A stretch of 64,000 nt of DNA, taken from NCBI GenBank assembly GCA_017447875.1, contig JAFSMP010000033.1, forward strand, positions 1-64,000, read 5' to 3'. Each line of letters starts with the position of its first letter. The first letter of the stretch is position 1. The notes beneath the pieces are model-generated. The model saw nothing but the letters and a program-made list of their open reading frames with translations, made no database searches and had not been told where the DNA came from. Positions 1,331-64,000 of this stretch are shown here, piece by piece. The position numbers and the translations under genes are program-made. The stretch comes from Paludibacteraceae bacterium (lineage in GTDB: Bacteria > Bacteroidota > Bacteroidia > Bacteroidales > Paludibacteraceae).

Positions 1331-2480
1331 TACGAACGGAGTGGGATACGAGGTGATGATCAAAGCCCTGCTGACGGGCTATATGTTCGAGATCATGCGC
1401 CCGGTCATCTACGGCAACGCCGCCGTGGCAAAACAGCATATCCAGACGCTGGACGAGGAGTACCGTAATATCACCTGGAACATAGTGGACAGTCCGGAAC
1501 AGGCGAAAGACGGTCGTCTGAACCTCCTTACCTGTTATCCGGATAACCTGCCGGTGCAATTAGGCACGAACACGGCCGAGTCCAACAAAGCCGCCAAGGC
1601 TGCTTTGGATCGCGCGTGCGCAGATCTGAAGGCCGGTAAGGTGCAGGCGCTCGTGACCGCTCCGCTGAATAAAGAGGCGTTACATGGCGGGCATACGGAG
1701 TACTTGGAGAAATATTTCGGAACAATGGACAATGGACAATGGACAATGGACAAAAATGATCCGACGAAACAAACAAATCCATCGTCCTTTAGTGAAACGG
1801 TCCATCGTCCTGTGTCTAATGGCGAGAGCCTGATGATGCTCTGTTCGGAGAACCTGCGGGTGGCACTGGTATGCAACCATGTGGCCTTGGCCGATATACC
1901 GGCGCAGATCACCGAAGAGCGGATCCTATCCAAGCTGACGCTGCTCAACAAGAGTCTGCTGCGGGACTTCGGCATGGACAAACCGCGTATCGCGGTGCTG
2001 GCCCTCAATCCGCATGCAGGCGATGCCGGACTGCTGGGAAAAGAAGAGCAGGACATCATCGTGCCGGCTATCGAGAAAGCGAAAGAGCAGGGTATATGGG
2101 CATTCGGACCTTATGCCGCAGACGGCTTCTTCGGCTCCGGGCACTTCACCCATTTTGATGCGGTGCTGGCGATGTATCATGACCAGGGACTGATCCCGTT
2201 CAAAACACTCGATATGAGTGGCGTCAACTATACGGCGGGCCTGTCGATCGTGCGTACCTCACCGGATCACGGTACGGGCTACGACATCGCAGGTAAGAAC
2301 CAAGCCGACCCGTCCTCCATGCGTAATGCGATATACATGGCGATCGATGTGCTGCGTCAACGAGAGCAGTACGATGCTATGACTGCCAATCCGCTGCCGT
2401 TCATCGAGCGGGCAGACGGAGAAGGCAAACCCAGAAGAGAATTTATGGACTTTAAGACAACCAAATATAATGACAAGTAA
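1299..2480 (+). CDS. pdxA: 4-hydroxythreonine-4-phosphate dehydrogenase PdxA with an in-frame repeat insertion
   Basis: PdxA oxidises 4-phosphohydroxy-L-threonine in the DXP-dependent pyridoxal phosphate pathway. Family marks are [14 protein letters not shown] at the N-terminus, [20 protein letters not shown] (the P/H metal region), [15 protein letters not shown] and [11 protein letters not shown] near residue 290. At 393 residues it is about 30 longer than expected, because roughly residues 142-172 ([11 protein letters not shown] through ETVHRPVS) come from a tandem heptamer array plus flanking element at about 1720-1815 that stays in frame. The insertion falls between the [11 protein letters not shown] and NGESLMMLC blocks, probably in a surface loop. 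Overlaps alaS by 11 bp. Confidence 0.92.
1720..1815. repeat. Repeat element inserted in frame in pdxA
   Basis: Four heptamers ACAATGG run at 1722-1749, followed by about 65 bp ending in TCCATCGTCCTTTAGTGAAA and CGGTCCATCGTCC. The right part contains GTCC-type motifs that are reverse complements of the left GGAC heptamers. The same architecture occurs between alaS and the GtrA gene at 5083-5185. Confidence 0.75.
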
Positions 2481-5085
2481 AGAGATTAGACAGTCCTTTT
2501 TGGACTTTATGGCAAGTAAGGGACACCAGGTGGTGCCCTCCGCACCGATGGTCATCAAAGATGACCCGACCTTGATGTTCACCAATGCCGGTATGAACCC
2601 GTGGAAGGGTATCATCCTGGGTAATGACCCGATTAAATATCCGCGTGTGGCAGACAGTCAGAAATGTCTGCGCGTGAGCGGTAAGCATAACGACCTCGAA
2701 GAAGTGGGTCACGATACGTACCACCACACGATGTTCGAGATGTTGGGTAACTGGTCGTTCGGAGACTACTTCAAGAAAGAGGCCATCGACTTCGCATGGG
2801 AGTATATCGTGGATGTACTTAAGATTGATCCGTCGAACCTGTACGCGACGGTCTTTGAGGGTTCGCCCGAAGAGGGACTGTCCCGTGACGACGAGGCTGC
2901 ATCTATATGGGCGAAACATCTGCCTGCTGACCATATCCTGAATGGTAACAAACACGATAACTTCTGGGAGATGGGGGATACGGGTCCATGCGGTCCGTGT
3001 AGTGAGATCCATGTGGACAGCCGTTCGGCTGAGGAGCGTGCGAAAGTGCCGGGTCGTGAGTTGGTGAACAAAGACCACCCGCAGGTCATCGAGATATGGA
3101 ACATCGTCTTCATGCAGTATAACCGCAAGGCAGACGGTTCGTTGGAACCGCTGGCGAAGAAGGTGATCGACACCGGTATGGGTTTTGAGCGTCTCGTGCG
3201 TACTATCCAAGGCAAGACCTCGAACTACGACACCGACGTCTTCCAGCCTATGTTGACCAAGATCGGCAACATATGCGGATGCGAGTACGGTAAGGATGAG
3301 AAGACCGACATCGCTATGCGTGTGATAGCCGATCATATCCGTACCATCGCTTTTGCCATCACCGACGGACAACTGCCGTCCAACGAGAAAGCCGGCTATG
3401 TCATCCGTCGTATCCTCCGCCGTGCGATCCGTTACGGCTATACCTTCCTCAACATGCGTAGCGCGTTCCTTTATCAACTCGTGCCGCAACTGATCGCCGA
3501 CATGGGTGAGGCCTATCCGGAACTGAAGGCACAGGAAGCACAGATCACTCCGGTCATCAAGTCCGAAGAAGAAGCCTTCCTCCGTACGCTCGACAAGGGC
3601 ATCGGTCTGCTCGACAAACTGATGGACGAAGCCCGCAAAGCCGGTAAGACCGTCATCAGCGGTGTCGATGTGTTCACCCTCAAAGATACTTACGGCTTCC
3701 CGCTCGACCTGACAGAACTCATCCTTCGCGAGAACGGATTCACCACCAACGAGGACGAGTATAACAAAGCGCTCGAGCACCAGAAAGAGATGGGACGTTC
3801 CGCCAACAAACAGGACCTCGGCGACTGGACCGTACTGGCAGAAGGCGAGACCGAGTTCGTGGGCTACGATGAACTGAGCGTCGAGACGAAGATCCTTCGT
3901 TATCGTCAGGTGAGCCAGAAAGGCAAATCGTTCTACCAGGTCGTGCTCAGCAAGACCCCGTTCTATGCCGAGATGGGTGGTGAAGTAGGTGACACCGGAG
4001 AATTGAAAATGGAAAATGGGAAATGGAAAATTATAGATACCAAGCGAGAGAACGGACTTCCCGTACACATATTGACCGAACTGCCGAGCGATCCTTCGGC
4101 TACGTTCATTGCTGAGGTAGATGCAACTCGTCGGCAGGCGATTGCATGTAACCACTCCGCCACCCATATCATCCATCATGCGCTGCGTGAGGTATTAGGC
4201 AAGCATGTGGAGCAGAAGGGTAGTCTGGTGACCGCAGAGAGTCTGCGTTTTGACTTCAGCCATTTCCAGAAAGTGACACCGGAAGAACTGCGTAAGGTGG
4301 AGCAACTGGCGAATGCCTTTGTACGTCGTGACTTCCACCTCGAGGAGAGTCGTCATACGCCGATTGCTGAGGCTAAGGCGATGGGTGCTATGGCGCTGTT
4401 CGGTGAGAAATACGGTGACGACGTACGTGTGATCAAGTTCGGTGACTCAGTAGAGCTCTGCGGTGGATGCCACGTGTCCAGCACCGGTCGTATCGGTGCG
4501 ATCCGCATCGTGATGGAGACCTCGGTCGCAGCCGGCGTACGTCGTATCGAAGCCGTCACCGCTGCCAAAGCCGATGAACTGTATTACCTGGCGCAAGACA
4601 CGCTCAACGGTCTGAAGGCTCTCTTTAACAATGCTCCGGACCTGGCAGGCACGATTCATAAGTTCATCGACGAGAACGCGAACCTCAAGAAACAGATCGA
4701 GCAGTTTACCGCAGAGAAGATCGAGCAGTTCCGTGACCGTATCATCGGTCGTGCGGAGGACTATAACGATATCAAACTCGTGCGTCTGGAAGGTGAACAG
4801 GATCCGGAGATGATCCGTGGTGTGATGCCGCTGCTGCGGGGCAAGTTCACCGATGTGCCCTTTGCCGTAGTAGCCGCTACATCTTGGAACGACAAACCGA
4901 CGATTGCTGTGTTCCTGAGCCAACCGCTCGTGGAGGCAGGCAAGAACGCCGGTGCGATGATCAAGTCCGCAGCTAAACATATACAAGGCGGAGGTGGCGG
5001 TCAACCCTGTTTCGCTACTGCCGGTGGTCGTGACGTTAACGGCCTCAATGCTGCCATGGAAGAACTGTTAAATGGACTTAAATGA
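2470..5085 (+). CDS. alaS: Alanine--tRNA ligase
   Basis: At 871 residues this is a full-length AlaRS. The catalytic core opens with [15 protein letters not shown] and has [26 protein letters not shown] and [17 protein letters not shown]. The editing domain has HSATH near residue 562 and [10 protein letters not shown] near 662 for zinc binding. The C-terminal domain carries the glycine-rich [16 protein letters not shown]. Within the editing region, at nt 4005-4032, four degenerate heptamers encode [10 protein letters not shown]; this is an in-frame expansion of a loop. The stop TGA is itself the first bases of the heptamer array that follows. Cytoplasmic and essential. Confidence 0.97.
4005..4032. 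repeat. Heptamer array inside alaS
   Basis: Four 7-nt units: GAAAATG, GAAAATG, GGAAATG, GAAAATT. It encodes the KMENGKWKI loop in the AlaRS editing region. Confidence 0.7.
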
Positions 5086-5185
5086 CAATTGACAATGGAC
5101 AGTGGACTAAAATACACGAACAGAAGGTTTTTTATCTATCGTCTTTCAGCGAAGCGGTCCATAGTCCTTTAGCGAAGCGATCAAT
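5083..5185. repeat. Intergenic repeat element related to the pdxA insertion
   Basis: Heptamers TGACAAT, TGACAAT, GGACAGT, GGACTAA run from the alaS stop codon (5083-5109). The right side has two 23-nt direct units, each with a TTTnAGCGAAGCG core (about 5139-5184). GGACAGTGGAC on the left is an imperfect reverse complement of GTCCATAGTCC on the right. The element fills the whole gap between alaS and the GtrA-like gene. Confidence 0.75.
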
Positions 5186-5626
5186 ATGAAATTACCAACA
5201 AGTTATCTAAAAGGGAAAGTGCGTAGTTCGGTGCGATTCATGATCGTCGGACTGACGGGCACGTTCGTGCAGACATGGTTCTTCATGTTAGCGATGTGGC
5301 TGTTAAACCAACCCGAGAAAGGCTCGGTACTGTTCTACGTGGCTTTCGGAATAGGTTTCGTATGCGAGATGATCCCGAACTACCTGTTCTCGAACTGGTA
5401 CACCTTCGGTACGCGTCCTGACTGGAAGAATGCCGGCGGGTTCTTGTTTGCCCGTGCCGTCAACCTGGCGATTCAGTTCGCGCTGTTACCCTTCATGCTG
5501 CGGCTGTTGCCGACCTGGAGGGAAGACTACCTGAGTCTGGCGGTGATCTTCTTTGCCGGAATCATCAATTACCTGATACTACTATTATTCTTCAAAAAAC
5601 CAAAGAATGAAAATATACAAAGCTAA
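5186..5626 (+). CDS. GtrA-like small membrane protein
   Basis: 146 residues with four predicted membrane helices. RFMIVGLTGTFVQTWFFML (about 17-35), a second helix around YVAFGIGFVCEMIPNY with the characteristic NYLFSNWYTFG continuation, then FARAVNLAIQFALLPFML and a last helix ending LILLLFFKKPK. The pattern R-F-x-x-V-G followed by N-Y-x-x-x-x-x-W-x-F is typical of GtrA, whose members are thought to move polyprenyl-phosphate-linked sugars across the inner membrane. No partner glycosyltransferase is adjacent. Overlaps guaD by 20 bp. Confidence 0.82.
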   Translation: MKLPTSYLKGKVRSSVRFMIVGLTGTFVQTWFFMLAMWLLNQPEKGSVLFYVAFGIGFVCEMIPNYLFSNWYTFGTRPDWKNAGGFLFARAVNLAIQFALLPFMLRLLPTWREDYLSLAVIFFAGIINYLILLLFFKKPKNENIQS

Positions 5627-8672: not shown

Positions 8673-8673
8673 A

Positions 8674-12913: not shown

Positions 12914-13840
12914 TTATTTCAAATAGACTCCAAAACCGATGTTGGCATTGATGGCTTGAGCACCCGGATTCTTAGGATGCCATTCGGCCGTATGCCGATC
13001 TTGGGATAGCATGTAAGGCTGGATCGTCAGTTGTCCCAATAGTTTCAGCCCGCAGTGTTCGCTCACACTCCAGTCTTTACGCAAACGGATGTCAATATTC
13101 ACCACCGCAAACGAACCCTGATAACCGGTGTAACCGCTCTTCCATGGGGTCATACCTACCGCTCCATACAGACTCATGTCATAGGGTAGGGCCTGGGTGT
13201 AACTGAGTTCCATATAACTGGAATAGGCCCTTATGATATCTCCGCTCGCATCCAGATAGCCGTCAGCGGCCGAGATGCGTGTGGCCCACAAGAAACTCAG
13301 AGGGATCTTACTGCTCACCGTATAGCGGGCATTAAGCTCCAAGCGGTTTCCTTTGTCGATGTAATTGGCGAAGTCAAAGAACCCGCAGTCGAAATTATGG
13401 ATATAGAGCGCAAAGATATTCAGTCCCCAGCGGTTAAAACCCAAGGAGAAATCCACTTCGGGTTGGAAGGTCTTAAAACTCCAGTCTGTGGCACCTAAAT
13501 TCCACCACATGTCCAGATACAGTCCTCCGTATCCTACATTCGCTCCTCCTTGTACGTTCAAACCTCCGGCATAGAATCCGCGCCAGAGATAGGCGGTGTT
13601 GAGCGTCGCATGTGCCCCGTAGGTGAAACCTACCGGAGCGGAGTAGTCATCTAACCAGGAGCGTCCTCCCGTTGATGCGGGAGGAGCGGCTTCCGCCGAG
13701 GAGGGCTCTTGCGCGTATGCGCCTGCGTTAAAAACAAAAGATAGCGCTCCAATGCAAAGCATCAGAGTCACTATCTTTTTTCCAATAACCGTTAATCTAT
13801 AACCTTTCACCGTTATTAAAGGGCATTCTGTACTTCCCAT
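12914..13840 (-). CDS. Secreted beta-rich protein, probable outer-membrane barrel (paralogue 2)
   Basis: Up to 308 residues, paralogous to the next gene downstream (NTAYLWRGFYAGG, RAYSSYMELSYTQALP, GAVGMTPWKSGY). The signal peptide hydrophobic core is MLCIGALSFVFNAGAYAQ. The start is uncertain: the ATG at 13840 overlaps the upstream gene by 25 bp, and an in-frame GTG lies at 13810. The N-terminal region before the core (ITVKGYRLTVIGKK) is encoded by a degenerate heptamer array at 13783-13817, so the leader has probably been rewritten by the repeat. Ends in VYLK. Confidence 0.6.
   Translation of the reverse strand: MGSTECPLITVKGYRLTVIGKKIVTLMLCIGALSFVFNAGAYAQEPSSAEAAPPASTGGRSWLDDYSAPVGFTYGAHATLNTAYLWRGFYAGGLNVQGGANVGYGGLYLDMWWNLGATDWSFKTFQPEVDFSLGFNRWGLNIFALYIHNFDCGFFDFANYIDKGNRLELNARYTVSSKIPLSFLWATRISAADGYLDASGDIIRAYSSYMELSYTQALPYDMSLYGAVGMTPWKSGYTGYQGSFAVVNIDIRLRKDWSVSEHCGLKLLGQLTIQPYMLSQDRHTAEWHPKNPGAQAINANIGFGVYLK
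13783..13817. repeat. Heptamer array at the signal-peptide coding region of barrel paralogue 2
   Basis: Five 7-nt units on the plus strand: CAATAAC, CGTTAAT, CTATAAC, CTTTCAC, CGTTATT. The units CAATAAC and CTATAAC recur in the array at 48688-48722. Confidence 0.7.
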
Positions 13841-14249: not shown

Positions 14250-15626
14250 ATGATTAAGCAGTCGAACATACAAAATCTCTTTTTCTTAGGCATCGGAGGC
14301 ATCGGTATGAGTGCCTTAGCGCGCTATTTTCATCATCGTGGATATGCTGTGTCCGGATATGACCGTACGCCTTCGGACCTGACGAAAGAACTGGAAACGG
14401 AAGGAATCGTTATCCTCTATAACGACGACCCGTCCCTTCTTCAGTCCCTCTCTCCGGCTCTTCTCAAAGACCATACGCTGGTCGTTCGTACGCCGGCGGT
14501 GCCGGAAGACAGTGCGATATACACCTGGCTGCGTGAGCAGGGTTTCGATATCCGCAAGCGGGCAGAGATACTGGGCTTGGTCACGCATGGTATGAAAGCG
14601 CTGTGTGTGGCAGGTACGCATGGTAAGACCACGACCAGCACGATGTTAGCGCATCTGTTGTACCAGTCGGAGATCGGAACGAATGCTTTCTTGGGCGGCA
14701 TCAGCATGAACTACGGCACGAATATATTGCTGCAGAAAGACAGCAGTTACGTAGTCGTAGAAGCCGATGAATACGACCGATCTTTTCATCAGTTGAAGCC
14801 TTATATGTCGGTGGTGACGGCGGTGGATGCCGACCATCTGGATATTTACGGTACGCCGGAAGCCTACCGTGAGGCCTTTGCTCATTATACAAGTTTGATC
14901 AGCGATGCGCTTGTTATGAAACACGGCATTGCGTTACAACCCCAATTGAAGGAAGGTGTCAAATGTTACACCTACGGAGTCGGTGAGGGAGATTTCTATG
15001 CCGACAATATCCGTGTGGAGAAAGGGAATATTTACTTTGATTTTCATACACCGACTGAGAGTCTTGTGGACTTGAAGTTGGGAGTTCCCGTATGGGTGAA
15101 TGTCGAGAATGCGGTGGCTGCGATGGCGATGGCTTGGCTCAATGGCGTCTCTGCCATCGAGTTAAGGCAAGGTATAGCGTCTTTCAAAGGGGTACACCGG
15201 CGGTTTAATATTCATGTCAATACGCCGAAAGTGGCCTATATCGATGACTATGCGCATCATCCGCAGGAGATAGCTACGGCGATCGACTCTATCCGACGTC
15301 TGTTCCCCGAACGCAAACTCATTGGCGTGTTCCAACCGCATCTGTATACGCGTACGCGTGATTTCGCGGAAGGGTTTAGACAAGTGCTCGGCACCATGGA
15401 CGAGTGCCTGTTGCTGCCTATCTATCCGGCACGCGAAGAACCGATAGAAGGTGTGAATAGTGAGATGTTAGGCGGTGAGGTGGTACAGAAAACCGAACTG
15501 ATAGACGCACTCAGAAGTCGTATAGCGGCGAGTGAACAGCCGGTAGTGGTGCTGACTGTTGGTGCAGGCGATATCGATCGCCTCGTACCGGATATAACCA
15601 AGGCCTTGAAGAATGGTAAATGGTAA
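14250..15626 (+). CDS. murC: UDP-N-acetylmuramate--L-alanine ligase
   Basis: 458 residues from the ATG at 14250; the longer frame from TTG at 14199 would begin inside the -7 box. FLGIGGIGMSALARYF is the UMP-binding Rossmann start, CVAGTHGKTTTSTMLAHLL the P-loop of Mur ligases, VVEADEYDRSFHQL and DADHLDIYG further conserved blocks, and DDYAHHPQEIATAI the C-terminal substrate motif. It adds L-alanine to UDP-MurNAc in the cytoplasm. The last codons and the start of ftsQ lie in two heptamers ATGGTAA (15613-15626). Confidence 0.96.
   Translation: MIKQSNIQNLFFLGIGGIGMSALARYFHHRGYAVSGYDRTPSDLTKELETEGIVILYNDDPSLLQSLSPALLKDHTLVVRTPAVPEDSAIYTWLREQGFDIRKRAEILGLVTHGMKALCVAGTHGKTTTSTMLAHLLYQSEIGTNAFLGGISMNYGTNILLQKDSSYVVVEADEYDRSFHQLKPYMSVVTAVDADHLDIYGTPEAYREAFAHYTSLISDALVMKHGIALQPQLKEGVKCYTYGVGEGDFYADNIRVEKGNIYFDFHTPTESLVDLKLGVPVWVNVENAVAAMAMAWLNGVSAIELRQGIASFKGVHRRFNIHVNTPKVAYIDDYAHHPQEIATAIDSIRRLFPERKLIGVFQPHLYTRTRDFAEGFRQVLGTMDECLLLPIYPAREEPIEGVNSEMLGGEVVQKTELIDALRSRIAASEQPVVVLTVGAGDIDRLVPDITKALKNGKW
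15613..15626. repeat. Two heptamers at the murC/ftsQ junction
   Basis: ATGGTAA twice in tandem. The first unit supplies the ftsQ start codon and the second the murC stop codon. Confidence 0.55.
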
Positions 15627-16353
15627 GATCATAGCTAAGAGCATCGGTGTCGGTGTGGTAGCAGCGATTCTGGTGGCAGCGATAGTGTGGGGCTATAAGA
15701 TGACTCCTACCTCCTTGCCCTGCGTATCGCTGGACTATACGATAGCGGATCGGGAGGAACGATTGTACCTCAGTGAAGCGGAGTTGAACCAACTGCTGCG
15801 CACGGAGAATCTGTATCCGGTGGGACGGCCGATAGATCGGATATCGCTGCATCGCATAGAGAAAGCCGTCGCACATCATCCGATGGTACGCACCGCCGAG
15901 TGTTACCTCACGCCTCGTAACGAGGTGCATGTGCGCTTGACGCAGCGGATACCGTTATTGCGGGTGCAGGTGGCTACCGACTCGTATTTCGTGGATACCG
16001 ACCGGCGGGTGATGCCCGTGCGGGCAGCCGTGCAGGATGAGGTGTTGCTCGTTACCGGTAATGCCGGCATCCAACTGGCTTCGGGTGCACTGGCTAACTT
16101 CGCCATCTGGTTGCAAGACAACAGTTATTGGCGCAATCGGATCAAACGCGTACATGTGGTTAATCCCCATATGCTCGTGCTGCATATGAGCGACGCACAG
16201 ATACCGCCGGTGGTGCTGGGTAACCTGACCGGATATAACCGTAAACTCACTAAGTTACGTACTTTTCTGGAGGACGGCACCGAAGAGACCGCCGGTAAGG
16301 CATACACCGAACTGGACATCCGTTTCCACGGACAAGTAATAGGCAGAAAATAA
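15613..16353 (+). CDS. ftsQ: Cell division protein FtsQ
   Basis: 246 residues, assigned by position between murC and ftsA and by topology: a short cytoplasmic N-terminus, one membrane helix (SIGVGVVAAILVAAIVWGY, about 10-28), then a periplasmic POTRA-like domain (LYLSEAELNQLL, RISLHRIEKAVAHHPMVRTA) and the FtsQ beta-region with EVHVRLTQRIPLLRV and YFVDTDRRVMPV. FtsQ links the early divisome to FtsB and FtsL. The start lies within the murC 3' end (14-bp overlap). Confidence 0.88.
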   Translation: MVNGKIIAKSIGVGVVAAILVAAIVWGYKMTPTSLPCVSLDYTIADREERLYLSEAELNQLLRTENLYPVGRPIDRISLHRIEKAVAHHPMVRTAECYLTPRNEVHVRLTQRIPLLRVQVATDSYFVDTDRRVMPVRAAVQDEVLLVTGNAGIQLASGALANFAIWLQDNSYWRNRIKRVHVVNPHMLVLHMSDAQIPPVVLGNLTGYNRKLTKLRTFLEDGTEETAGKAYTELDIRFHGQVIGRK

Positions 16354-16387
16354 TTGGTAAATGGTAATTGGTAAATAGTAAATGGCT
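16353..16387. repeat. Heptamer array at the ftsQ/ftsA junction
   Basis: Five 7-nt units: ATTGGTA, AATGGTA, ATTGGTA, AATAGTA, AATGGCT. The ftsA start codon ATG (16382) is inside the last unit. Confidence 0.75.
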
Positions 16388-24354: not shown

Positions 24355-27103
24355 GGTGCAAGGCCGTGATGCCGGTGCCGTCATGTATCTGCGTGCGGCA
24401 GGAGATACCCGGTGCGGCGATGAAGACGGGATGCTCCATCGTGTGATGCTTGACCGCTTCACGAACGGCCGGGAAGAGAATCATCTCACCGATAGCGATC
24501 GAGGTTTGGTAATGCGCTTTCTCGTAACCGAATGAACCTGCCATGCCGCAACATCCCGAAGGGATGACATGGACCGTTGTGTTCTTCGGCAAACGGAGTA
24601 GGGCAGCCGTTTTCTCCACGCCTACAATCGCTTTCTGATGGCAATGACCATGGAGCCATATCTCGGCCGGCATGTCAGAGAAAGCGTCTGCCGTGATTCG
24701 TCCCGCTTCCACTTCCCGCATCAGGAACTCATCGAACAGCATGCAGTTCTTGGAGATGGAAGAAGGAAACTCATCGCGGAAAGTGAGGATGCATGAGGGT
24801 TCAATTCCTACTAACGGTGTCTCATCTGTGATCAGGTCTTTGAGCAAACGGTAATTCTTTTGTGCCAAACGCTCTGCCTGCCGCCAACAACCCTTCGAGA
24901 TAGCGGCTCTACCGCTCTCCACATGTTTCGGAATAATCACCTCGTAACCTAAACGGTTCAGCAACGCCACGAATGTCTGAGCCAATCTTGGCTCATTGTA
25001 TCGCGTAAATTCATCCAAGAACAAGTATACCCGCTTGTCGAACTTTCCACTTTCTACTTTCCACCTTCCACCAATCTGCGGAATATGCCGTTCATCTGCA
25101 AAGCCGACGATCTTTTTGAGGATAGAGGATGTGAACTTGTTGGATGCAAAGAAATTGTAGATGTGCGGCACGAAGGAACCGAGTTTTTGGAACGCAGCAT
25201 TGTTCGCAATCATACGAATGTGCAGCGGAGTACCTTCTTGATCGTAGATGCGTTGCAGGGCTTCGGCACGTAAACGGGTCATATCGACACCCGACGGGCA
25301 CTCTTTCTTGCATGCTTTGCAGGCCAGGCAAGACATCAAAACTTCCTTCACTTGTGCGGTGTCCACCGGCCCGCCACTCAAGAACTCGCGAAGCAGATTA
25401 GCCCTTGCCCGAGTGGTCTGCAGTTCGTCGTGGCTGACCTTATAGGTAGGACACATCGTGCCGCCGATCACTTGCGACTTACGGCAGTCTCCGGCACCGT
25501 TACATTGCTCCACACGACAGAGCAGGTCGTCACCTGTAACCGGTTTTCCGTAACCCATCACCCGTAAGCCCTCGTCCATCCTCGGTGTATCGATGATCTT
25601 ATGGGGATTGAAGATATTGTCCGGATCCCAGCAGTACTTCACTTGCCGCATCAACTCGTAGGTGGGTTCTCCGTACTGCAGCGGGATGAACTCACCGCGC
25701 AGACGACCGTCTCCGTGTTCACCGCTGATCGTACCGCGGTGTTTGCGAACCAGCAATGTCGTCTCATGAGCGATCGTGCGGAAGAGCTGTCGACCTTCTT
25801 CCGTCTTGAGATTCAAGATCGGGCGCAGGTGCAACTCACCGGTACTGATATGTCCGTAGAAGACGCAGGACGTACCGAGACGCTTGAGCATCTCGCGGAA
25901 GTCTTTCATATAAGCGGGTAGGCGGGACGGGGCCACTGCCGTATCTTCGATCACGCCGGTCGGTTTGGCGTCGCCTTTCATGCTGCTTAAGATACCGAGT
26001 CCGGCTTTACGCAAGTTCCAGACCTTAGCTACGTCGGAGCCATAGACACGCGTGCAGCCGGTGATAAGACCCGTGGCTTGCAGGGCTTGCTCCATGGCTT
26101 CGGCTTGCTTATCCAAATCCTCGCGGCTGTCGCTACGTAACTCGGCGATGAGCAACGCAGCCGGGTCACCTTGCACGAAGAACCGTTCTACGGAAGGCGT
26201 GTGTTTGCTTAGTTCGAGGATCTCACCGTCCATGAGTTCGATGGCGGTGGGGTGTTGCTTGAGGGCAGTCAAGTTCGCTTCGAAGGCAGCGTCCAGACTC
26301 ACGCAATGCGCACAAACGACCATCACTTCTTTGGGAGGCTGCGGGTCGAGCGAAACCTTGATGCGGGTAAGGAAAGCCAGCGTGCCTTCACTTCCGGCGA
26401 TCAGTTTGCAGAGGTTGATCGTGCCGTCTTTGGCGATATCTTCAATCGTCTCATCGATCGCGTAACCGCAACTGCGGCGTGTCAACTCCTTGTCCGGATA
26501 GGTCTCTTCGATCAACTTCCTCGTTTTCTCATCCTCCGCCCAATGAATCAACTGCTGATAGATGCGTCCTTCTAAAGAATTGCTTTCGACTTTTGACTTT
26601 CGACTTTCGACTTTTCCGAAGTGTACTTTAGTACCGTCGGAGAGCACGCCGTCTGCTTCCAATACGTGCGGGCGCGTGCTGCCGTATATTAAGGAGTGGG
26701 TACCGCAGGAGTTATTACCCACCATTCCGCCGATACAGCAGCGGTTTGAGGTCGAGGTCTCCGGACTGAAGAAAAGCCCGTAGGGCTTGAGCGCCAGATT
26801 CAGTTCGTCGCGTACCACACCCGGTTCAACCCAAGCATAGCGTTCCTCGGCGTTGATCTCGAGGATTCGGTTCATGTGGCGACTGATGTCCACCACGATG
26901 CCGTTTCCCACGACCTGTCCGGCGATAGACGTACCGCCTGCACGCGCAATGAGGTTCGTTCCGCGACGACGCGCCTCATGGATCAACTCCACGATATCGT
27001 CCTCGTTCTTAGGGTAGGCAACACCGTACGGTATCTCGCGATACACACTCGCGTCCGTGGCGTACGCGATCTTATGCAAACTGTCTGTTTGGATGTCTAT
27101 CAT
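24311..27103 (-). CDS. FAD-binding and Fe-S oxidoreductase (D-lactate dehydrogenase-like)
   Basis: 930 residues. N-terminal PCMH FAD domain (RGTNLIARAGGTSIAGQVVG, RCCIGGMVGNNSCG), FAD-oxidase C domain with SGEHGDGRLRGEFIP, then a ferredoxin region (CNGAGDCRKS...MCPTYK and CLACKACKKECPSGVD) and a CCG domain (HGHCHQKAIVG, IPSGCCGMAGSFGYEKAHY). This arrangement is that of GlcD/DLD-type fusions oxidising D-2-hydroxy acids and passing electrons to a quinone or carrier. Two heptamer arrays, at 25042-25069 and 26583-26617, encode RWKVESGKF and GKVESRKSKVES in frame, at linker-like sites. Confidence 0.88.
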   Translation of the reverse strand: MIDIQTDSLHKIAYATDASVYREIPYGVAYPKNEDDIVELIHEARRRGTNLIARAGGTSIAGQVVGNGIVVDISRHMNRILEINAEERYAWVEPGVVRDELNLALKPYGLFFSPETSTSNRCCIGGMVGNNSCGTHSLIYGSTRPHVLEADGVLSDGTKVHFGKVESRKSKVESNSLEGRIYQQLIHWAEDEKTRKLIEETYPDKELTRRSCGYAIDETIEDIAKDGTINLCKLIAGSEGTLAFLTRIKVSLDPQPPKEVMVVCAHCVSLDAAFEANLTALKQHPTAIELMDGEILELSKHTPSVERFFVQGDPAALLIAELRSDSREDLDKQAEAMEQALQATGLITGCTRVYGSDVAKVWNLRKAGLGILSSMKGDAKPTGVIEDTAVAPSRLPAYMKDFREMLKRLGTSCVFYGHISTGELHLRPILNLKTEEGRQLFRTIAHETTLLVRKHRGTISGEHGDGRLRGEFIPLQYGEPTYELMRQVKYCWDPDNIFNPHKIIDTPRMDEGLRVMGYGKPVTGDDLLCRVEQCNGAGDCRKSQVIGGTMCPTYKVSHDELQTTRARANLLREFLSGGPVDTAQVKEVLMSCLACKACKKECPSGVDMTRLRAEALQRIYDQEGTPLHIRMIANNAAFQKLGSFVPHIYNFFASNKFTSSILKKIVGFADERHIPQIGGRWKVESGKFDKRVYLFLDEFTRYNEPRLAQTFVALLNRLGYEVIIPKHVESGRAAISKGCWRQAERLAQKNYRLLKDLITDETPLVGIEPSCILTFRDEFPSSISKNCMLFDEFLMREVEAGRITADAFSDMPAEIWLHGHCHQKAIVGVEKTAALLRLPKNTTVHVIPSGCCGMAGSFGYEKAHYQTSIAIGEMILFPAVREAVKHHTMEHPVFIAAPGISCRTQIHDGTGITALHPIEILYRLLPSVHQ
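25042..25069. repeat. Heptamer array inside the FAD/Fe-S gene, first site
   Basis: Four 7-nt units on the plus strand: ACTTTCC, ACTTTCT, ACTTTCC, ACCTTCC; encodes WKVESGKF on the minus strand. Confidence 0.72.
26583..26617. repeat. Heptamer array inside the FAD/Fe-S gene, second site
   Basis: Five 7-nt units: CTTTCGA, CTTTTGA, CTTTCGA, CTTTCGA, CTTTTCC; encodes GKVESRKSKVES on the minus strand, between the FAD-binding half and the EGRIYQQL segment. Confidence 0.75.
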
Positions 27104-38005: not shown

Positions 38006-40229
38006 ATACCTGGGACTGATACTGCTGTCAGTGATCAGTATTCAGTATTCAGTGGCGCAGAACCAAGTGAAGGTGACTGCGCTGCAGCACGATATCAAGG
38101 ACCTGTCGCAGCGTTCGTCGAAGGTGTTTGACCAGAACGGCGAGCGGTGTGCGGTGATCAAGTTCGAGACGCCGATCCCTTCCTTCTTCTCGTTCAACCT
38201 CGGCGCACAGCAGATCGAGAAACGCGAGAACAAAGATGACGAGGTATGGATATGGGTGAGTCCGGACGTGAAGAAGATGACCATCCGCTGCAGCGACTGT
38301 ACGCCGCTCAAGGACTACCGCGTCAACCTCAAGTCGGGTAACGTCTATCGCGCGAAGATCACGACAGGCCTGCCGCAAGAGGTAGCTACGACGCAAAAAG
38401 TCAATTTCTACTGCGATCATATCCCGTACTATATCTCCATCGACGGCGCAGAACCGATAGAGCACAAGGCGCATACCTATTATACGGAGTTACCGATCGG
38501 AGCGCACCAGGTGATGATGTCGGCGAAGTTATACAAGCCGTACAACGCCACGTTCCGCGTGTTCCGCAGCAAGCCGTATATGGATACTGTGCGTCTGGAG
38601 GAGAACTACGGCGAGATCGCATTGACCGCTACGCAGTCCGCTTATACAGTCTATCTGGACGATGAGTTACAGCGTCATAACCGCTTAATCAAAGCCGAAC
38701 CGGGTGAGCACAAGCTGGTGGTGAGCAAAGACCGTTACGAGTCCTATGAGACGCGTGTGGAGGTGAAGCTCAAAGAGCAGACTCCGGTACATGCGGTGCT
38801 CAAACCGGCGTTTATGCTGTTTACGATCGAGGCTGCGGAAGATGAGACGGAGATATGGGTGGACGATACCTACCGCGGTCGCAGAAAAGCGAATGTCGAG
38901 TTGGTATGGGGTACGCACCAGATCGAGGGTCGACGCAAAGGGTATGACACCTGGGAGTACGCGGTGAAGGATATCAATGCCAATTCGGAGAAGAACATCC
39001 GAATCCCGAAGCTGAACAAGCAGTACGGCAGTATCCGTCTGTCGATCTTCCCGCCGGGCGCAGAGACGTATGTGGACGGTAAGTTAGTCAACTCGAGTAA
39101 CGGTATTTACACCGATCCGCGCGTCGTGACCGGTCTGCATTTCGTGCAGATTCGTTTGACGGATTATAAGTCGGTTCGCGACACCTTCACCGTTGAGTCG
39201 GGGCAGGTGTATGCGCGTAACTATGAGTTACAACCGATCGCCTTGGGTGAGGCTACGATTCAGACCGATCAGGATGTGGCGATCTACCGTCGTGTGCCGG
39301 ATGAAGATGTGCCTATCTTCTTGGGACATACGCAGTATAAGGGTAAACTGCCGGCAGGTGAGAACGTGATCGAGTTGAAGAGCGCTGCCGGAGTGACCTG
39401 CCAGTACCACGTGTTCATCAACGAGAAACAGATGCATACCTTCTCTATGCCGTTCAAGCGCAAGCTGATGGTTCGTACCAACGTGGTAGGCGGCAAACTG
39501 ATGGTGAGCACGCCATATACGAAGCAGCCGTACCGTATCAAGGCGAACAAGAAGATGAACAGCAACCCGCTTAAGTATGTCATCGATATCGACAAGAAAG
39601 GCTATCAGCCGTTTCATGACACGATCGACTTGACGATCCCGGGACAGAAATATACGGTTTACCGGGCGGAGTTACGCAAGACCAATGATACCATCCCGCA
39701 TGAGAAACGGTATCAGAGTCCGGCGTTCCTGCAGCGCTACTACGACAATGCCGGTACCTGGTTCATCGGTATCATCGATTTCGGCTATATCTTTGACTTC
39801 AACGGAGGTAAGGACTTTGGATTCAAACATATCCTGACGGCCGGTGTGCTGCCGTTCCGTTACCGCATGTTAGGCGTCAACGCGGCGGACTTCGAGCTCT
39901 GTGTGAGTGACTCGGCGAAGATGGAATCATTCAGTTATCGTCCGAAGATATCGCTCGTGCTGCCCTGCAAGCCGGGCTTTGCCTTCACGTTCTACACGGG
40001 TCTGTCGATCAACCTGTACGACCGGCATTTCGCCAAAGAGAAACCGGCCACAGTGCGTACGGATCTGTTAGGCGGCGTATCGATGAAACTCAACAGCGCA
40101 GGACGTTTCCCGGTGGATATCTTTGCCGAATACAAATATCCGCTGAAGGGACGCGATCTGTCGCTTATCAGTCATAAGGAACAGTTGTTCCGCGTAGGTA
40201 TCCTGTTCACTCCGGGTATCGATCATTAA
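37986..40229 (+). CDS. PEGA-domain protein with a C-terminal barrel-like region
   Basis: 747 residues. The signal peptide core LILLSVISIQYSVAQ is partly encoded by a heptamer array (38028-38055). Several PEGA-type modules follow (GAHQVMMSAKLYKPYNATFR, AEPGEHKLVVSKDRYESYET, VWGTHQIEGRRKGYDTWEYA, GSIRLSIFPPGAETYVDGKL, VTGLHFVQIRLTDYKSVRDT). The last 150 residues (WFIGIIDFGYIFDF, FPVDIFAEYKYPLKG, LFRVGILFTPG) look like barrel strands. PEGA modules bind extracellular or peptidoglycan-linked surfaces in other proteins; the role here is inference. Confidence 0.75.
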   Translation: MVNGFSKYLGLILLSVISIQYSVAQNQVKVTALQHDIKDLSQRSSKVFDQNGERCAVIKFETPIPSFFSFNLGAQQIEKRENKDDEVWIWVSPDVKKMTIRCSDCTPLKDYRVNLKSGNVYRAKITTGLPQEVATTQKVNFYCDHIPYYISIDGAEPIEHKAHTYYTELPIGAHQVMMSAKLYKPYNATFRVFRSKPYMDTVRLEENYGEIALTATQSAYTVYLDDELQRHNRLIKAEPGEHKLVVSKDRYESYETRVEVKLKEQTPVHAVLKPAFMLFTIEAAEDETEIWVDDTYRGRRKANVELVWGTHQIEGRRKGYDTWEYAVKDINANSEKNIRIPKLNKQYGSIRLSIFPPGAETYVDGKLVNSSNGIYTDPRVVTGLHFVQIRLTDYKSVRDTFTVESGQVYARNYELQPIALGEATIQTDQDVAIYRRVPDEDVPIFLGHTQYKGKLPAGENVIELKSAAGVTCQYHVFINEKQMHTFSMPFKRKLMVRTNVVGGKLMVSTPYTKQPYRIKANKKMNSNPLKYVIDIDKKGYQPFHDTIDLTIPGQKYTVYRAELRKTNDTIPHEKRYQSPAFLQRYYDNAGTWFIGIIDFGYIFDFNGGKDFGFKHILTAGVLPFRYRMLGVNAADFELCVSDSAKMESFSYRPKISLVLPCKPGFAFTFYTGLSINLYDRHFAKEKPATVRTDLLGGVSMKLNSAGRFPVDIFAEYKYPLKGRDLSLISHKEQLFRVGILFTPGIDH
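38028..38055. repeat. Heptamer array in a signal-peptide coding region
   Basis: Four 7-nt units: TCAGTGA, TCAGTAT, TCAGTAT, TCAGTGG; encodes SVISIQYSVA of the PEGA protein signal peptide. Confidence 0.7.
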
Positions 40230-45078: not shown

Positions 45079-45114
45079 TTCTGAATATTCCGAATATTCT
45101 GAATAATCCGATTT
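45079..45114. repeat. Nonamer array between porU and porV
   Basis: Four 9-nt units: TTCTGAATA, TTCCGAATA, TTCTGAATA, ATCCGATTT. Related in consensus to the 9-nt array at 63952-63996. Confidence 0.65.
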
Positions 45115-48519: not shown

Positions 48520-49040
48520 TTGATCTTGCAGTATAATAGTTCTTTGCCGTCGTGCTCAACACGTATGACTTGTTCTTTCTGTACTTTTTGCGGGGCTTGC
48601 TTTGCCTGAATATAGATCAGGTCTCCTTGTCGGATGGTCATCACCTTACTCGCCTCCGCGATCGCTTGCTCGGGGGAGATAAGAAGACTATCACCTATAA
48701 CCAATAACCTATCACCTTTATCCATCCATTCGCCTATTGCTAAGGAGTAGTCAAACGCCAAGGCTTTCGTCCAGGGTTTTCCTTGTGCTTTCGCCTCACG
48801 GGCTATATCTATCGCAAGGAAGTCTGCTCCGGGAGCTACCGCATCGTAGTAACGGTCGGCAAACTTAGGGGCTATCTCTTTGCCCAAACGGCTCACTCGC
48901 AGGATCAGACACGGAGTAACGCCTATCTCGTTCGACCACTCGGGCAGGAAGAACGGTTTGCGGCCGTTGAGCAGACAACTGTCGCCCTTCAGCACCATCT
49001 CGTACCTGCCTTCACGATATATAAAGCCTATAATCTTCAC
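48516..49040 (-). CDS. Fumarylacetoacetase-fold protein, probably catalytically dead
   Basis: 174 residues. KPFFLPEWSNEI, LRVSRLGKEIAPKFADRYYD, GADFLAIDIAREAKAQGKPW and FDYSLAIGEW align with short Bacteroidota FAH proteins (pattern LPD...EI, RLGKxIxxxFAxRYYD, GxDFTARDLQ, KGFDxSAxIG). The YETE segment that supplies two metal-binding glutamates in those relatives reads GVTPCL here, so the metal site looks lost. A heptamer array at 48688-48722 encodes KGDRLLVIGDSL. It is coupled to porU by a 4-bp overlap and leads the porU-porV operon. Confidence 0.65.
   Translation of the reverse strand: MKIIGFIYREGRYEMVLKGDSCLLNGRKPFFLPEWSNEIGVTPCLILRVSRLGKEIAPKFADRYYDAVAPGADFLAIDIAREAKAQGKPWTKALAFDYSLAIGEWMDKGDRLLVIGDSLLISPEQAIAEASKVMTIRQGDLIYIQAKQAPQKVQKEQVIRVEHDGKELLYCKIK
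48688..48722. repeat. Heptamer array inside the FAH-like gene
   Basis: Five 7-nt units: CTATCAC, CTATAAC, CAATAAC, CTATCAC, CTTTATC. Shares units with the array at 13783-13817. Confidence 0.72.
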
Positions 49041-57310: not shown

Positions 57311-58182
57311 TTCTTTCTATGGTCATCTGGTCGGTCAGCGGCATTGCTATCAAGCATGCGTTGGCCGTCTTTCCGCCCTTTACGATGATCGTGCTGCGGT
57401 TCGTACCTTCGGTATTGCTGATGTTCATCATCGGTATGGTCAGACGCAAACACTCGCTCTTCTGCCTGCAAAAGATGGACCTCAAAGACCTGCCTCTTTT
57501 TCTGATTGCAGGCTTCTGTCAACCCTTCCTCTATTACATGCTCGAGACCTTCGCTTTCGATGCACTCAACAGCCCTACTATTGCCGAAACACTGCTCTCA
57601 ACCAGTCCTTTACTCAGTCCTATCTTTGCGGCTGTTATCTTACGCGAACGGGTAACAAAATACAATATCATCGGTATTCTTATTTCTACAACAGGCGTTT
57701 TTACCCTTTCGCTCGTTGGCAATAAAGACTTCTCCATCGGTAGTTTTTGGGGTGTACCGTTAGCCTTTGCGGCCGTCTCTGCAGCCGTGGTGGACTCGAT
57801 CATGATGCGCAAGGCTCCGGTAAAATATAGCTCGCTCAGTTTCGTGTTCTACACCCAACTCATCAGCCTCTGTTTCTTCATCCCTGTGTGGTTTGTTAAG
57901 GAAGGACCGGAAGCCATTTACCAATTACCATTTACCATTCACGATACAGAGCTGCAAATGGCGTTAGGTTGCATCGCGTACCTTACGATCTTTGCTTCCG
58001 TCATCGCGTTTATCCTCTTCTGTTATGCCCTTCGGCAGGTAGGAGTGACGCAGGCCAATGCGTTCAATAATATCCGACCGGCATTTACCGCATTATGGAT
58101 GTTCCTCTTCTTCGATGAGATACTGCCTTTAGGCAAGTGGATAGGTATGATTTTAATTATTTTCGGTTTATTTGTGTGTTAA
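57262..58182 (+). CDS. EamA/DMT-superfamily transporter
   Basis: 306 residues with ten predicted helices in two EamA repeats: the first from ALILSMVIWSVSGIAIKHAL, the second from GSFWGVPLAFAAVSAAVVDS. Typical PTIAETLLSTSPLLSPIFAAVILRE (as shorter blocks) and a closing FFDEILPLGKWIGMILIIFG are present. A heptamer array (57915-57942) encodes the external loop YQLPFTIHD between helices 6 and 7. The substrate is unknown. Confidence 0.87.
   Translation: MPTSRDRTQYVAVIALILSMVIWSVSGIAIKHALAVFPPFTMIVLRFVPSVLLMFIIGMVRRKHSLFCLQKMDLKDLPLFLIAGFCQPFLYYMLETFAFDALNSPTIAETLLSTSPLLSPIFAAVILRERVTKYNIIGILISTTGVFTLSLVGNKDFSIGSFWGVPLAFAAVSAAVVDSIMMRKAPVKYSSLSFVFYTQLISLCFFIPVWFVKEGPEAIYQLPFTIHDTELQMALGCIAYLTIFASVIAFILFCYALRQVGVTQANAFNNIRPAFTALWMFLFFDEILPLGKWIGMILIIFGLFVC
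57915..57942. repeat. Heptamer array inside the EamA gene
   Basis: Four 7-nt units: CATTTAC, CAATTAC, CATTTAC, CATTCAC; in frame within a loop of the transporter. Confidence 0.72.
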
Positions 58183-58258: not shown

Positions 58259-58291
58259 CACGCTTTTTATCGAATATAACAAACAATCGAT

Positions 58292-61120: not shown

Positions 61121-61128
61121 TCCTGCCA

Positions 61129-62091: not shown

Positions 62092-63317
62092 TGTCTCAGA
62101 GTCTGGAAGAACATATGGCTACCATCGAGCGGGCGTTGGGTGAGCGCATGGTGATGCATGCGCTGGTCATCGTGCGTTCCTGGCTCAATGAGTTGGGGGA
62201 GAACAACCCCTACGAGCAGGCTTTTGGTCAGATCCAGACTCAGTATGAGACTCTCTTCAGTCAATGGTTGACTTCCGATGACCCGGAACGCGAGGAGCAG
62301 TTGGAGCGTCTCACCGGTGACACCTACCGTCTGGTGGATGCGTCCTATGCGGCCTTGCGTCTCAAACGCGGTCTGTCACCCGACATGCACGGTTTCAATC
62401 GGGACAACCTGCAGTCGGTGATGCAGTATTTCTCGTTCTGCCTGAATATACGTGAAGAGGACTACGACTGGATGCGGGAAGTGATGAACGACTCTGACCA
62501 CGCGGCGATAGCCCTGATGGCCGTGGCAGCGCTGGCGAAGAATATCCGGGATTGCTTTGACGAAAAGGCGATGATGGTGCTCATCGAAGGCATCAACTGC
62601 GAGAATGAGGTGGTGGCAGAACAATGCCTGGCGAACCTGCTGATCCTGATGGCGCATTACGATGTGCGTATTGATTTCTTCCCGGACCTGCAAAACGCGT
62701 TCATCGCAGCTATTAACGAGATGGAAGATGAGGGCGAACAGGCTTTTCATACGCTCTGCGCACTCGTTCGTTCGGTCAAATCCAACTGGCGGGAGAATAT
62801 CGCATCCGGAGAACTGAAGATAGAAGACCTGCCGGAAGAGTTGCAGAGCTTACTCGAACTGACCGGCAATAAGGATGATATACAAGGCGTCGTGTCCTGG
62901 ATTCCGGCCTCAGAGCAGGAGTACATGATGGGCTTGATCGAGATTCTGCCGGACACCTGGATTTACAGTGCCCTCATCGGTGACTCTACCGAACGGGCCT
63001 CCCATATGGCCATCATCTATCTGTCCATCGGTCGTATGGACCTGCTGTGGAACCATACGGACGTGGCGGCCAAATGGCTCGTCAACCAGTTACGGGAAGG
63101 TAGTCAATCTCCGCTCGACTATATCAACTATGCGCATTGTCTGTTGCTGCAGGGCGACCGGATGATGGCTTACGAATACTACAAACAGGCACGGCAGTTA
63201 TGCAAAGGATCCAAGGAGTTCTTTGCGCTCTTCCGTCCTGACCGAAATGACCTGGTAGAACACGGAATACCACTCGAGCAGGTCTATCTGATCGAAGATA
63301 ATCTGCTTAAAAACTGA
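62091..63317 (+). CDS. TPR/HEAT-like repeat protein of unknown function
   Basis: 408 residues, nearly all helical. Hints of repeats are AIALMAVAALAKNIRDCFDE, VVAEQCLANLLILMAHYDVR and, near the end, SPLDYINYAHCLLLQGDRMM with AYEYYKQARQLCKGSKEFFA, a typical TPR pair. It starts with a GTG at 62091 that overlaps the glycosyltransferase stop, so it is translationally coupled to it. No enzyme motif is seen. Convergent with the partial outer-membrane gene, 11-bp overlap. Confidence 0.65.
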   Translation: MSQSLEEHMATIERALGERMVMHALVIVRSWLNELGENNPYEQAFGQIQTQYETLFSQWLTSDDPEREEQLERLTGDTYRLVDASYAALRLKRGLSPDMHGFNRDNLQSVMQYFSFCLNIREEDYDWMREVMNDSDHAAIALMAVAALAKNIRDCFDEKAMMVLIEGINCENEVVAEQCLANLLILMAHYDVRIDFFPDLQNAFIAAINEMEDEGEQAFHTLCALVRSVKSNWRENIASGELKIEDLPEELQSLLELTGNKDDIQGVVSWIPASEQEYMMGLIEILPDTWIYSALIGDSTERASHMAIIYLSIGRMDLLWNHTDVAAKWLVNQLREGSQSPLDYINYAHCLLLQGDRMMAYEYYKQARQLCKGSKEFFALFRPDRNDLVEHGIPLEQVYLIEDNLLKN

Positions 63318-64000
63318 CGCCAAGTCCGGCATCGATAAACTCAGCCCGTACACCGTGGGTCTTAAGACCCAACTGCACAAACAGGTGATCCAGTACGTGG
63401 TATTTCATCACAAACTGCATATAGCACCAGCCATCCTGATAATTGCTGGCTTTCGAGAAATCATAACCGTAGAAGACACCGCGGTTCAAGGACTTACCGT
63501 TATCATCCGCTGCCTTTGCCTCTTTGTACGGTTCTAAGTTCTTGACCGGATCGAAGATATAGAATCCGACATGAATACCGGCGGTCAGATGACCGATGAT
63601 GAACTCCGGCTGGATACTGAAACCTACGCGGAAACAGTTCTTGATATCGCTTTTTTTCAGATAGGTCTTACCGAAATAGGTGGGAGTTGCCCCCTCATTA
63701 CCCGGTTCATTGATAAAATCCTTACTTACACAGGCATAATAACCGTCGTAGAACGCATCGAATCCACCACCGATACGGAAGATACTCACCGGCACCCAGT
63801 ACGCAGCAGCCTTCAGCGTCGCAACACCGAAGAACTTCTGACCGTTCATGTTGTCCTTGTAGTAATTCTGCTTCGCGCCACCCGTCGCACTGATCTCCAC
63901 TGCCCAGGCTTTTTCCACCTCTTCGTGTAACTCCTTGGTGGTCATCCGCTTCGGAGTACTCTGAGTATTCTGCGTATTCGGAGTACTCGGATGGTATCTG
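63307..64000 (-). CDS. Outer-membrane protein, acyloxyacyl hydrolase/PagL-like (partial)
   Basis: The frame is open to the window edge, so the start is outside. The visible part begins with a linker RYHPSTPNTQNTQSTPKRMT, encoded by a 9-nt repeat array, then barrel-like strands: KFFGVATLKAAAYWVPVSIF, CFRVGFSIQPEFIIGHLTAG, YMQFVMKYHVLDHLFVQLGL and the last KTHGVRAEFIDAGLGVSF. The last two strands resemble Bacteroidota proteins annotated as acyloxyacyl hydrolases (lipid A deacylase-like), but catalytic residues cannot be confirmed. Confidence 0.55.
   Translation of the reverse strand, partial: RYHPSTPNTQNTQSTPKRMTTKELHEEVEKAWAVEISATGGAKQNYYKDNMNGQKFFGVATLKAAAYWVPVSIFRIGGGFDAFYDGYYACVSKDFINEPGNEGATPTYFGKTYLKKSDIKNCFRVGFSIQPEFIIGHLTAGIHVGFYIFDPVKNLEPYKEAKAADDNGKSLNRGVFYGYDFSKASNYQDGWCYMQFVMKYHVLDHLFVQLGLKTHGVRAEFIDAGLGVSF
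63952..63996. repeat. Nonamer array in the linker of the outer-membrane protein
   Basis: 9-nt units: CGGAGTACT, CTGAGTATT, CTGCGTATT, CGGAGTACT, CGGATGGTA; each gives a tripeptide in the minus-strand frame (pattern S/N-T-P/Q). Confidence 0.72.

What the first reader, a model, noticed from the sequence alone, without database searches (positions are those of the whole stretch)
1722..63996. Dispersed short tandem arrays with exact 7-nt (and 9-nt) periods, between genes and in frame inside conserved genes
Eleven arrays with a strict 7-nt period lie at 1722-1749, 4005-4032, 5083-5109, 13783-13817, 15613-15626, 16353-16387, 25042-25069, 26583-26617, 38028-38055, 48688-48722 and 57915-57942; two 9-nt arrays lie at 45079-45114 and 63952-63996. 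Unit sequences differ between loci (ACAATGG, GAAAATG, ATGGTAA, CTTTCGA, CTATCAC, CATTTAC, TCAGTAT), but the period is constant and some units recur at distant loci. Seven encode loops or linkers in proteins such as AlaRS and an FAD enzyme; others form start and stop codons. The shared period but changing unit suggests a replication, repair or templating process that favours a seven-base register, or a family of mobile micro-repeats like the heptameric STRRs of cyanobacteria. I know of no described mechanism for this in Bacteroidales.
Basis: partly seen in the sequence, partly recalled or inferred. Interest (0 to 1): 0.8.

Follow-up and report, generated by a model that had tools for sequence, protein, structure and literature searches.

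The report
Spreading seven-base repeat blocks in genes
Short blocks of repeated seven-letter DNA are scattered through this gut bacterium and its relatives, even inside important genes without breaking their reading frame, and whole blocks appear, vanish and change between related species, so they seem to spread by copying rather than by slow stretching.

Summary
The observation largely holds. Nine of 11 listed 7-nt arrays and both 9-nt arrays far exceed shuffles; 13783 is not a strict 7-nt array and 15613 is weak alone. A 464-kb sample of the same genome holds 53 period-7 arrays against 0 in four shuffles. Period 7 dominates; 8, 9 and 11 also occur. Lengths peak near 31 nt.

These do not behave like ordinary slippage tracts. 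The same permissive places (PdxA, AlaRS and HisRS loops, gene junctions) carry different arrays in different species. Imperfect arrays recur at unrelated loci. One family, AGTCR(AAAGTCR)nAAAG, which includes the array at 26583, is in 98 of 178 congeners with up to 202 overlapping hits; its ends are nearly constant and its lengths cluster at 16, 23, 30 and 37 nt. Between two species whose shared samples are 91% identical, 8 of 12 array sites are replaced or empty; one shows a one-unit change.

Best reading: dispersed micro-repeats that spread as whole blocks and survive where tolerated. The copying route is inferred. Heptad excess in bacteria is published; block turnover inside conserved genes is what this adds.

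The parts
1722..1753 (+). period-7 array, family AATGGAC, in frame in a PdxA loop
   Evidence: score 25; exact AATGGAC runs at 7 places in the own-genome stretches read and in 22 of 178 congeners; loop empty or differently filled in relatives
4001..4032 (+). period-7 array in frame in AlaRS (site 1)
   Evidence: score 15; other units or no array in congeners
5083..5109 (+). period-7 array over the alaS stop codon
   Evidence: score 12; arrays at the same junction in some congeners
13783..13817 (-). listed array at the start of a 308-aa ORF; not a strict 7-nt array
   Evidence: 16 of 28 lag-7 matches, no local segment of score >=5
15612..15626 (+). two heptads of the AAATGGT family at the end of a Mur ligase gene and the start of the next ORF
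   Evidence: score 8, weak alone; family at 10 places in the own-genome stretches read
16351..16387 (+). period-7 array, AAATGGT family, between two ORFs, giving stop and start codons
   Evidence: score 14; shares 22 nt with the arrays at 57914 and in L164
25042..25072 (-). period-7 array in frame in the FAD-linked oxidase gene, second site
   Evidence: score 15
26583..26617 (-). period-7 array, AAAGTCR family (30-nt block at 26583-26612), in frame in the FAD-linked oxidase gene
   Evidence: score 19; exact 30-nt block; 32 nt identical to an array in another place of congener G015; family in 98 of 178 congeners
38028..38055 (+). period-7 array near the start of a PEGA-domain ORF
   Evidence: score 13; Pfam PEGA
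45079..45114 (.). period-9 array TTCNGANTA type, between genes
   Evidence: score 12; similar 9-nt arrays at 63952 and twice in L156
48688..48722 (-). period-7 array in a 174-aa ORF with a weak FAA_hydrolase match
   Evidence: score 11; Pfam
57914..57942 (+). period-7 array, AAATGGT family read on the other strand, in frame in EamA-like transporter
   Evidence: score 13; 26 nt shared with an array in L164 of the same genome
63952..63996 (.). period-9 array TTCNGANTA type, upstream of a 212-aa ORF
   Evidence: score 14

Best explanation
The arrays are dispersed micro-repeats. Blocks of about 16-40 nt, made of two to five heptads, arrive, spread and are lost as whole blocks, and survive where a protein loop or a gene junction tolerates them. 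Arrays of one family are copies of each other, amplified separately in each lineage. Unit-by-unit slippage adds only occasional changes. Shown here: sharing of units and of imperfect arrays between unrelated loci; permissive sites with different arrays in different species; amplification of one family with nearly constant ends and clustered lengths; gain, loss or replacement at most sites compared between two close species. Inferred: the copying step. I commit to short-patch ectopic copying: single-stranded DNA from one array anneals by a few bases at a replication fork or gap and is copied in, which would also replace local sequence and needs no dedicated gene. First arrays of a new unit would come from rare polymerase stutter with a preferred seven-base step, as Mrazek and colleagues proposed (quoted in papers read).
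For: Excess of period 7. Length peak near 31 nt with fewer short arrays. Same unit in 3.09% of within-genome pairs against 1.05% between genomes, p=0.001. 22 pairs of arrays among 211 share an imperfect string of at least 22 nt; 19 have unrelated flanks. Same places, different arrays in the pdxA-alaS region of 62 loci, the PdxA loop, AlaRS, HisRS. AAAGTCR family in 98 of 178 congeners; 13 of 13 own-genome copies end at one phase, 56 of 62 in the larger set. Between G519 and G085, 12 distinct sites read: 8 replaced or empty, 1 interrupted by a hairpin, 1 one-unit change, 2 unchanged.
Against: No insertion was caught within one species; the closest pair differs by about 9%. Constant ends were found only for AAAGTCR; the AATGGAC family shows none. 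Constant ends fit an end-recognising enzyme better than patch copying. Some arrays are conserved between species, and recombination of whole alleles between species can mimic new insertions (AlaRS alleles). Short proteins loops vary in any case: other non-array inserts occur at the same sites. No donor was traced for any patch.
Confidence: 0.5

Rival explanations
1. Ordinary long simple-sequence repeats: DNA polymerase slippage favours a seven-base step, each array grows locally from a chance seed and drifts.
For: Published heptanucleotide excess with this proposed cause (passages of PMC4679880 and PMC4692102). A one-unit difference (37 against 30 nt) between G085 and G519; a 9-nt PdxA array differs by 27 nt between G030 and G015.
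Against: Sharing of units within genomes above between genomes, identical imperfect arrays at unrelated loci, amplified family with constant ends, and replacement by other arrays at 91% identity. In coding sequence single steps of 7 would shift the frame.
Confidence: 0.2
2. A true mobile element: an unidentified enzyme recognises the ends of blocks such as AGTC...AAAG and inserts them in trans, like a very small transposon.
For: Ends AGTC in 41 of 62 and AAAG in 56 of 62 copies, preceded by T in 39 and followed by C in 38, lengths clustering at 16, 23, 30, 37; 0 to 202 overlapping hits per genome; clean-looking insertion at L409:18385.
Against: No terminal inverted repeat is visible in the block and no target duplication is evident in the few empty sites seen (not tested systematically). 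Other families lack constant ends. No candidate enzyme found; Y1 transposase matches occur in 12 of 33 congeners, mostly partial, and their link to array number was not tested statistically.
Confidence: 0.17
3. The arrays are functional sites (regulatory, RNA-binding or useful protein loops) kept by selection for their sequence.
For: Some arrays are conserved across species; arrays at gene junctions can supply stop and start codons.
Against: At one place the unit changes freely between species, and array-free alleles of the same loops exist. The unit grammar is slight.
Confidence: 0.08
4. Products of a defence-type reverse transcriptase such as DRT10, which makes tandem-repeat DNA, integrated by chance.
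For: DRT10 makes tandem-repeat single-stranded DNA, 9-nt units for Eco3 (preprint PMC12632851: outline, one results section and passages read). In a 33-genome subset all 8 genomes with RVT_1 have AAAGTCR hits, against 16 of 25 without.
Against: Over 178 congeners RVT_1 is in 35; the AAAGTCR pattern is in 17 of these 35 and in 81 of the other 143 (tables crossed by hand; Fisher p=0.45). G519, listed 100% complete with 128 hits, is not among the RVT_1 matches. Very divergent RTs could be missed.
Confidence: 0.03

Closest known systems
Heptanucleotide long simple-sequence repeats (Mrazek and colleagues; Huang and Mrazek 2014, PMC4060949)
   Same: Tandem heptads dominate among unit sizes; excess reported in Bacteroidetes genomes.
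   Different: Here whole arrays recur at unrelated loci, sit in frame in conserved genes, and turn over as blocks more than by unit steps.
Cyanobacterial STRRs and TAACTGA or GGGAATC heptads (PMC4679880, PMC4692102)
   Same: Short dispersed heptad arrays shared between distant lineages; horizontal spread was suggested for TAACTGA without a mechanism.
   Different: Those reports centre on intergenic arrays of one or a few units; here many unit families coexist in one genome and many arrays lie inside genes. Identity of sequence with cyanobacterial STRRs was not tested.
Rickettsia palindromic elements (RPE) and other in-gene MITEs (PMC10969869, passages)
   Same: Dispersed repeats inserted in frame in unrelated protein genes.
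   Different: RPEs are about 150 bp and palindromic; these blocks are 16-40 nt, tandem and not palindromic.
Short-patch double illegitimate recombination (recalled; no paper found)
   Same: Would copy an ectopic short stretch into a locus and replace local sequence.
   Different: Not tested here; no donor was traced.

Membership tests
Heptanucleotide simple-sequence repeats | head-to-tail units with a seven-nt preference above chance | tested here: met
   53 period-7 arrays in 464 kb against 0 in four shuffles
Heptanucleotide simple-sequence repeats | relatives differ mainly by unit number at the same site | tested here: not met
   one of 12 distinct sites between G519 and G085 shows a one-unit change, 8 are replaced or empty
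Cyanobacterial STRR | short dispersed heptad arrays | tested here: met
Cyanobacterial STRR | unit sequences of the named STRR classes | not tested
   no cyanobacterial genome was searched
Rickettsia palindromic elements / MITEs | in-frame insertion in unrelated protein genes | tested here: met
   PdxA, AlaRS, FAD oxidase, HisRS, TsaD, a 50S-binding GTPase
Rickettsia palindromic elements / MITEs | palindrome or terminal inverted repeats | tested here: not met
   by inspection of AGTCR(AAAGTCR)nAAAG copies
Rickettsia palindromic elements / MITEs | target-site duplication | tested here: inconclusive
   only a few empty sites read, none with an evident duplication
REP elements with Y1 (RAYT) transposase | Y1 transposase in the carrier genomes | tested here: inconclusive
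   PF01797 in 12 of 33 congeners, mostly partial matches; no link to array number tested
DRT10-type tandem-repeat DNA | reverse transcriptase in array-bearing genomes | tested here: not met
   RVT_1 in 35 of 178; no association, p=0.45

The most novel reading that the evidence does not exclude
These are a class of mobile sequence smaller than any I know: non-palindromic blocks of a few heptads, 16-40 nt, with defined ends in at least one family, copied in trans to new loci and overwriting short stretches of essential genes in frame, by a machinery not yet described. They would be a standing source of new protein loops and gene junctions across a genus and perhaps across phyla.
Probability: 0.28. 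Interest if true: 0.85.

Novelty: new variant of a known kind. Interest (0 to 1): 0.62.

Why it matters
Heptad repeats have been counted in bacteria for years, with slippage as a proposed but, in the papers read, untested cause. Here a genus of 178 held species shows gains, losses and replacements of whole arrays at known sites in conserved genes, so the question of how they arise becomes directly testable. If they spread by block copying, they are an overlooked source of in-frame protein variation and a visible trace of short-patch DNA copying.

Tried and rejected
Hypervariable template column: arrays with a column of three or more letters are not in excess (22 of 114 against 27.4 expected). 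Core-and-spacer architecture inside arrays: a simulation shows that trimming of array ends creates it. A strict unit grammar: only slight (information 4.39 against 3.92 for shuffled units). Constant ends in all families: not seen for AATGGAC; the pooled phase test mixed in runs of N and variant-bounded runs and is not used. Constant reading frame of AAAGTCR copies: 8 of 10 in this genome, but 11 of 20 and 16 of 36 sense copies in the larger sets, so not claimed. Reverse transcriptase: not associated. Rfam: only a tRNA in the window and nothing in four array-rich loci. Failed steps: AlaRS alignment with unoriented loci, a too-narrow PdxA pattern.

Corrections to my notebook: entry 1 called a 33-nt array of L022 and L023 non-orthologous; that was wrong (AlaRS site 2 in both), as entry 3 says. 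Entry 2 said that 22 species with long AlaRS alleles all show the register; one search has 19 long alleles, 7 short and 4 not read, and not all long ones show it. Entry 2 also said 0 arrays for the Bacteroides-like loci; one of them (L080) has one. Entry 3 counted 18 non-orthologous pairs; one search lists 19.

Literature: searches (ten, PubMed Central open papers only). Nothing on these arrays in Paludibacteraceae came up; the seven papers holding an AAAGTC-type string are on other subjects by their titles and abstract starts.
Full report
What is there. The window belongs to a 2.25-Mb draft genome in 70 contigs, listed 76.7% complete. Its nearest named relatives are uncultured Bacteroidales of rumen and gut, some labelled Paludibacteraceae by their depositors. 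Nine of the 11 listed 7-nt arrays and both 9-nt arrays stand far above shuffles; 13783 is not a strict array and 15613 is two copies. In the window plus 400 kb of the same genome, periods 7, 8, 9, 10 and 11 give 53, 18, 8, 7 and 4 arrays; four block shuffles give 0 at period 7. By a simple ORF test, 33 of the 53 lie inside reading frames, 14 at edges and 6 between; ORFs called this way cover 92% of the sample, so arrays are relatively scarcer inside them.

Length. Lengths peak at 30-32 nt, about four and a half units, with fewer short arrays although the detector reaches 16-19 nt. Growth by single units would not be expected to give that shape, and in coding sequence each single step of 7 shifts the frame.

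Sharing. Among 198 arrays from this genome and its congeners, two arrays of one genome have the same unit in 3.09% of pairs against 1.05% between genomes (permutation p=0.001; shuffled units 0.37%). Among 211 arrays, 22 pairs share an imperfect string of at least 22 nt; 3 look orthologous by their flanks and 19 do not. The array at 26583 shares 32 nt, its variant unit included, with an array elsewhere in congener G015.

Permissive sites. In the pdxA-alaS region of 62 loci from the genus, arrays fall at the same few places: gene junctions, one PdxA loop and two AlaRS sites (a few loci may be one species under two labels). The PdxA loop could be read in 24 of 63 sequences: eight are empty or nearly so (10-11 residues), others hold heptad arrays of different units, 9-nt arrays or other inserts. 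AlaRS site 1 was read in 26 of 30 loci: 7 short alleles of 51 nt without array and 19 long ones (18 of 63 nt, one of 69), many of them visible heptad arrays of different units (more species). Alleles are also shuffled across the AlaRS tree, so recombination between species plays a part. The FAD enzyme site at 26583 was read in 7 of 25 loci: 48 nt shorter in G563, another heptad array in G034, other inserts elsewhere. The array thus often stands in place of other sequence rather than as a simple addition.

One family in depth. AGTCR(AAAGTCR)nAAAG, R being G or A, was read at 13 places in this genome, 7 of them in stretches fetched because a search had found it there. All 13 end at the same phase (naive p about 7e-11), and the ten coding copies are all sense and all followed by C. 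The 23-nt pattern is in 98 of 178 congeners, with 0 to 202 overlapping hits per genome; the reversed control pattern is in 13 of 178, with at most 8 hits. In 62 copies from G519, G062 and a few loci of G547, 41 begin AGTC, 56 end AAAG, and lengths cluster at 16, 23, 30 and 37; 36 lie in sense ORFs, 8 in antisense ORFs, 13 between and 5 at edges. The search patterns demand a perfect core, so the lack of other variation is partly by construction. Copies lie in frame in HisRS, TsaD and a 50S-binding GTPase. A second family, AATGGAC, is in 22 of 178 congeners and shows no constant ends.

Turnover. The samples of G519 and G085 share 39 kb of alignment at a mean 91% identity. As counted by the script, of 10 G519 arrays with an orthologous site 3 are identical and 7 different or absent; of 6 G085 arrays 3 are identical, 1 similar and 2 absent. 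Counting each site once, by reading the alignments: 12 sites, 2 unchanged, 1 with one unit more, 1 interrupted by a hairpin, 8 replaced or empty. In one replacement a heptad array stands against a period-8 array. The HisRS loop has neither array nor insert in G043, AAAGTCR in G519, a variant of it in G093, and another insert in G085. Yet some arrays are conserved between species with their internal variants (AlaRS site 2 in G096 and G034; G067 and G059; several in an unnamed genus of the same class), so a settled array can be stable.

Reach. The 25-nt AAAGTCR pattern is in 19 of 394 genomes drawn from the phylum, 15 of them in one unnamed genus, and in 35 stretches of the viral collection. In 80 named Bacteroidales loci there are 64 period-7 arrays in 26 loci: up to 10 in a near relative and 8 in a rumen Prevotella, none in 54.

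How it works. The evidence favours spread and loss of whole blocks, with survival at tolerant sites. The copying step is not shown. Short-patch copying from an existing array needs no dedicated gene and would explain replacement; constant ends in one family speak instead for an end-recognising enzyme. Slippage does occur but looks minor. Reverse transcriptase is not associated (17 of 35 RT-bearing genomes have the AAAGTCR pattern, 81 of 143 others; p=0.45). Y1 transposase matches are in 12 of 33 congeners and mostly partial.

Against what is known. Heptanucleotide excess in bacteria, Bacteroidetes included, is published (PMC4060949, section read; PMC4679880 and PMC4692102, passages read), with polymerase slippage as a proposed cause. 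Heptad tracts for phase variation are known in Haemophilus (PMC2651432, passages). In-frame dispersed elements are known as Rickettsia palindromic elements (PMC10969869, passages), but those are about 150 bp and palindromic. Added here: whole-block turnover in conserved genes over a genus, and one amplified heptad family with defined ends. I file it as a new variant of a known kind.

Noticed in passing
L358, L360, L361, L364, L369, L370 (G519); L302, L304, L290, L157: Small hairpins abut AAAGTCR arrays: GTGCCTCCGGGCACTCCGA (its 14-mer at 10 places in 254 kb of G519) and GACCG-stem-CTCAAAG; one lies inside the reading frame of a GTPase gene, and one interrupts an array in G085.
   Followed up: partly
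L148, L157, L158, L159, L161, L163 (own genome); L047, L054, L058: A period-8 family with core TTTAAC and two or three free positions recurs in this genome and congeners.
   Followed up: no
45079-45114, 63952-63996; L156:486-511 and 2985-3024: The 9-nt arrays of this genome resemble one family, TTCNGANTA.
   Followed up: no
L051, L053, L063, L029 (PdxA loop): A 9-nt in-frame array encoding NDA-type repeats varies in copy number between congeners (48 nt in G030, 75 nt in G015), as an ordinary VNTR would.
   Followed up: partly
L218, L221, L225, L226, L232, L234, L235, L238: AAAGTCG arrays in viral-collection contigs, several directly after CAT, that is beside a possible start codon on the other strand.
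   Followed up: no
L069:9190-9230 region and L171 (AlaRS site 1): Two species far apart on the AlaRS tree share a nearly identical ACAATGT-array allele at AlaRS site 1, which suggests allele transfer.
   Followed up: no
own genome sample: Dispersed 14-mers such as AAGCAGTACCTTTG and TTGCATATATCAAA recur at 11-14 places; they look like Bacteroidales promoter parts (recalled motif).
   Followed up: no
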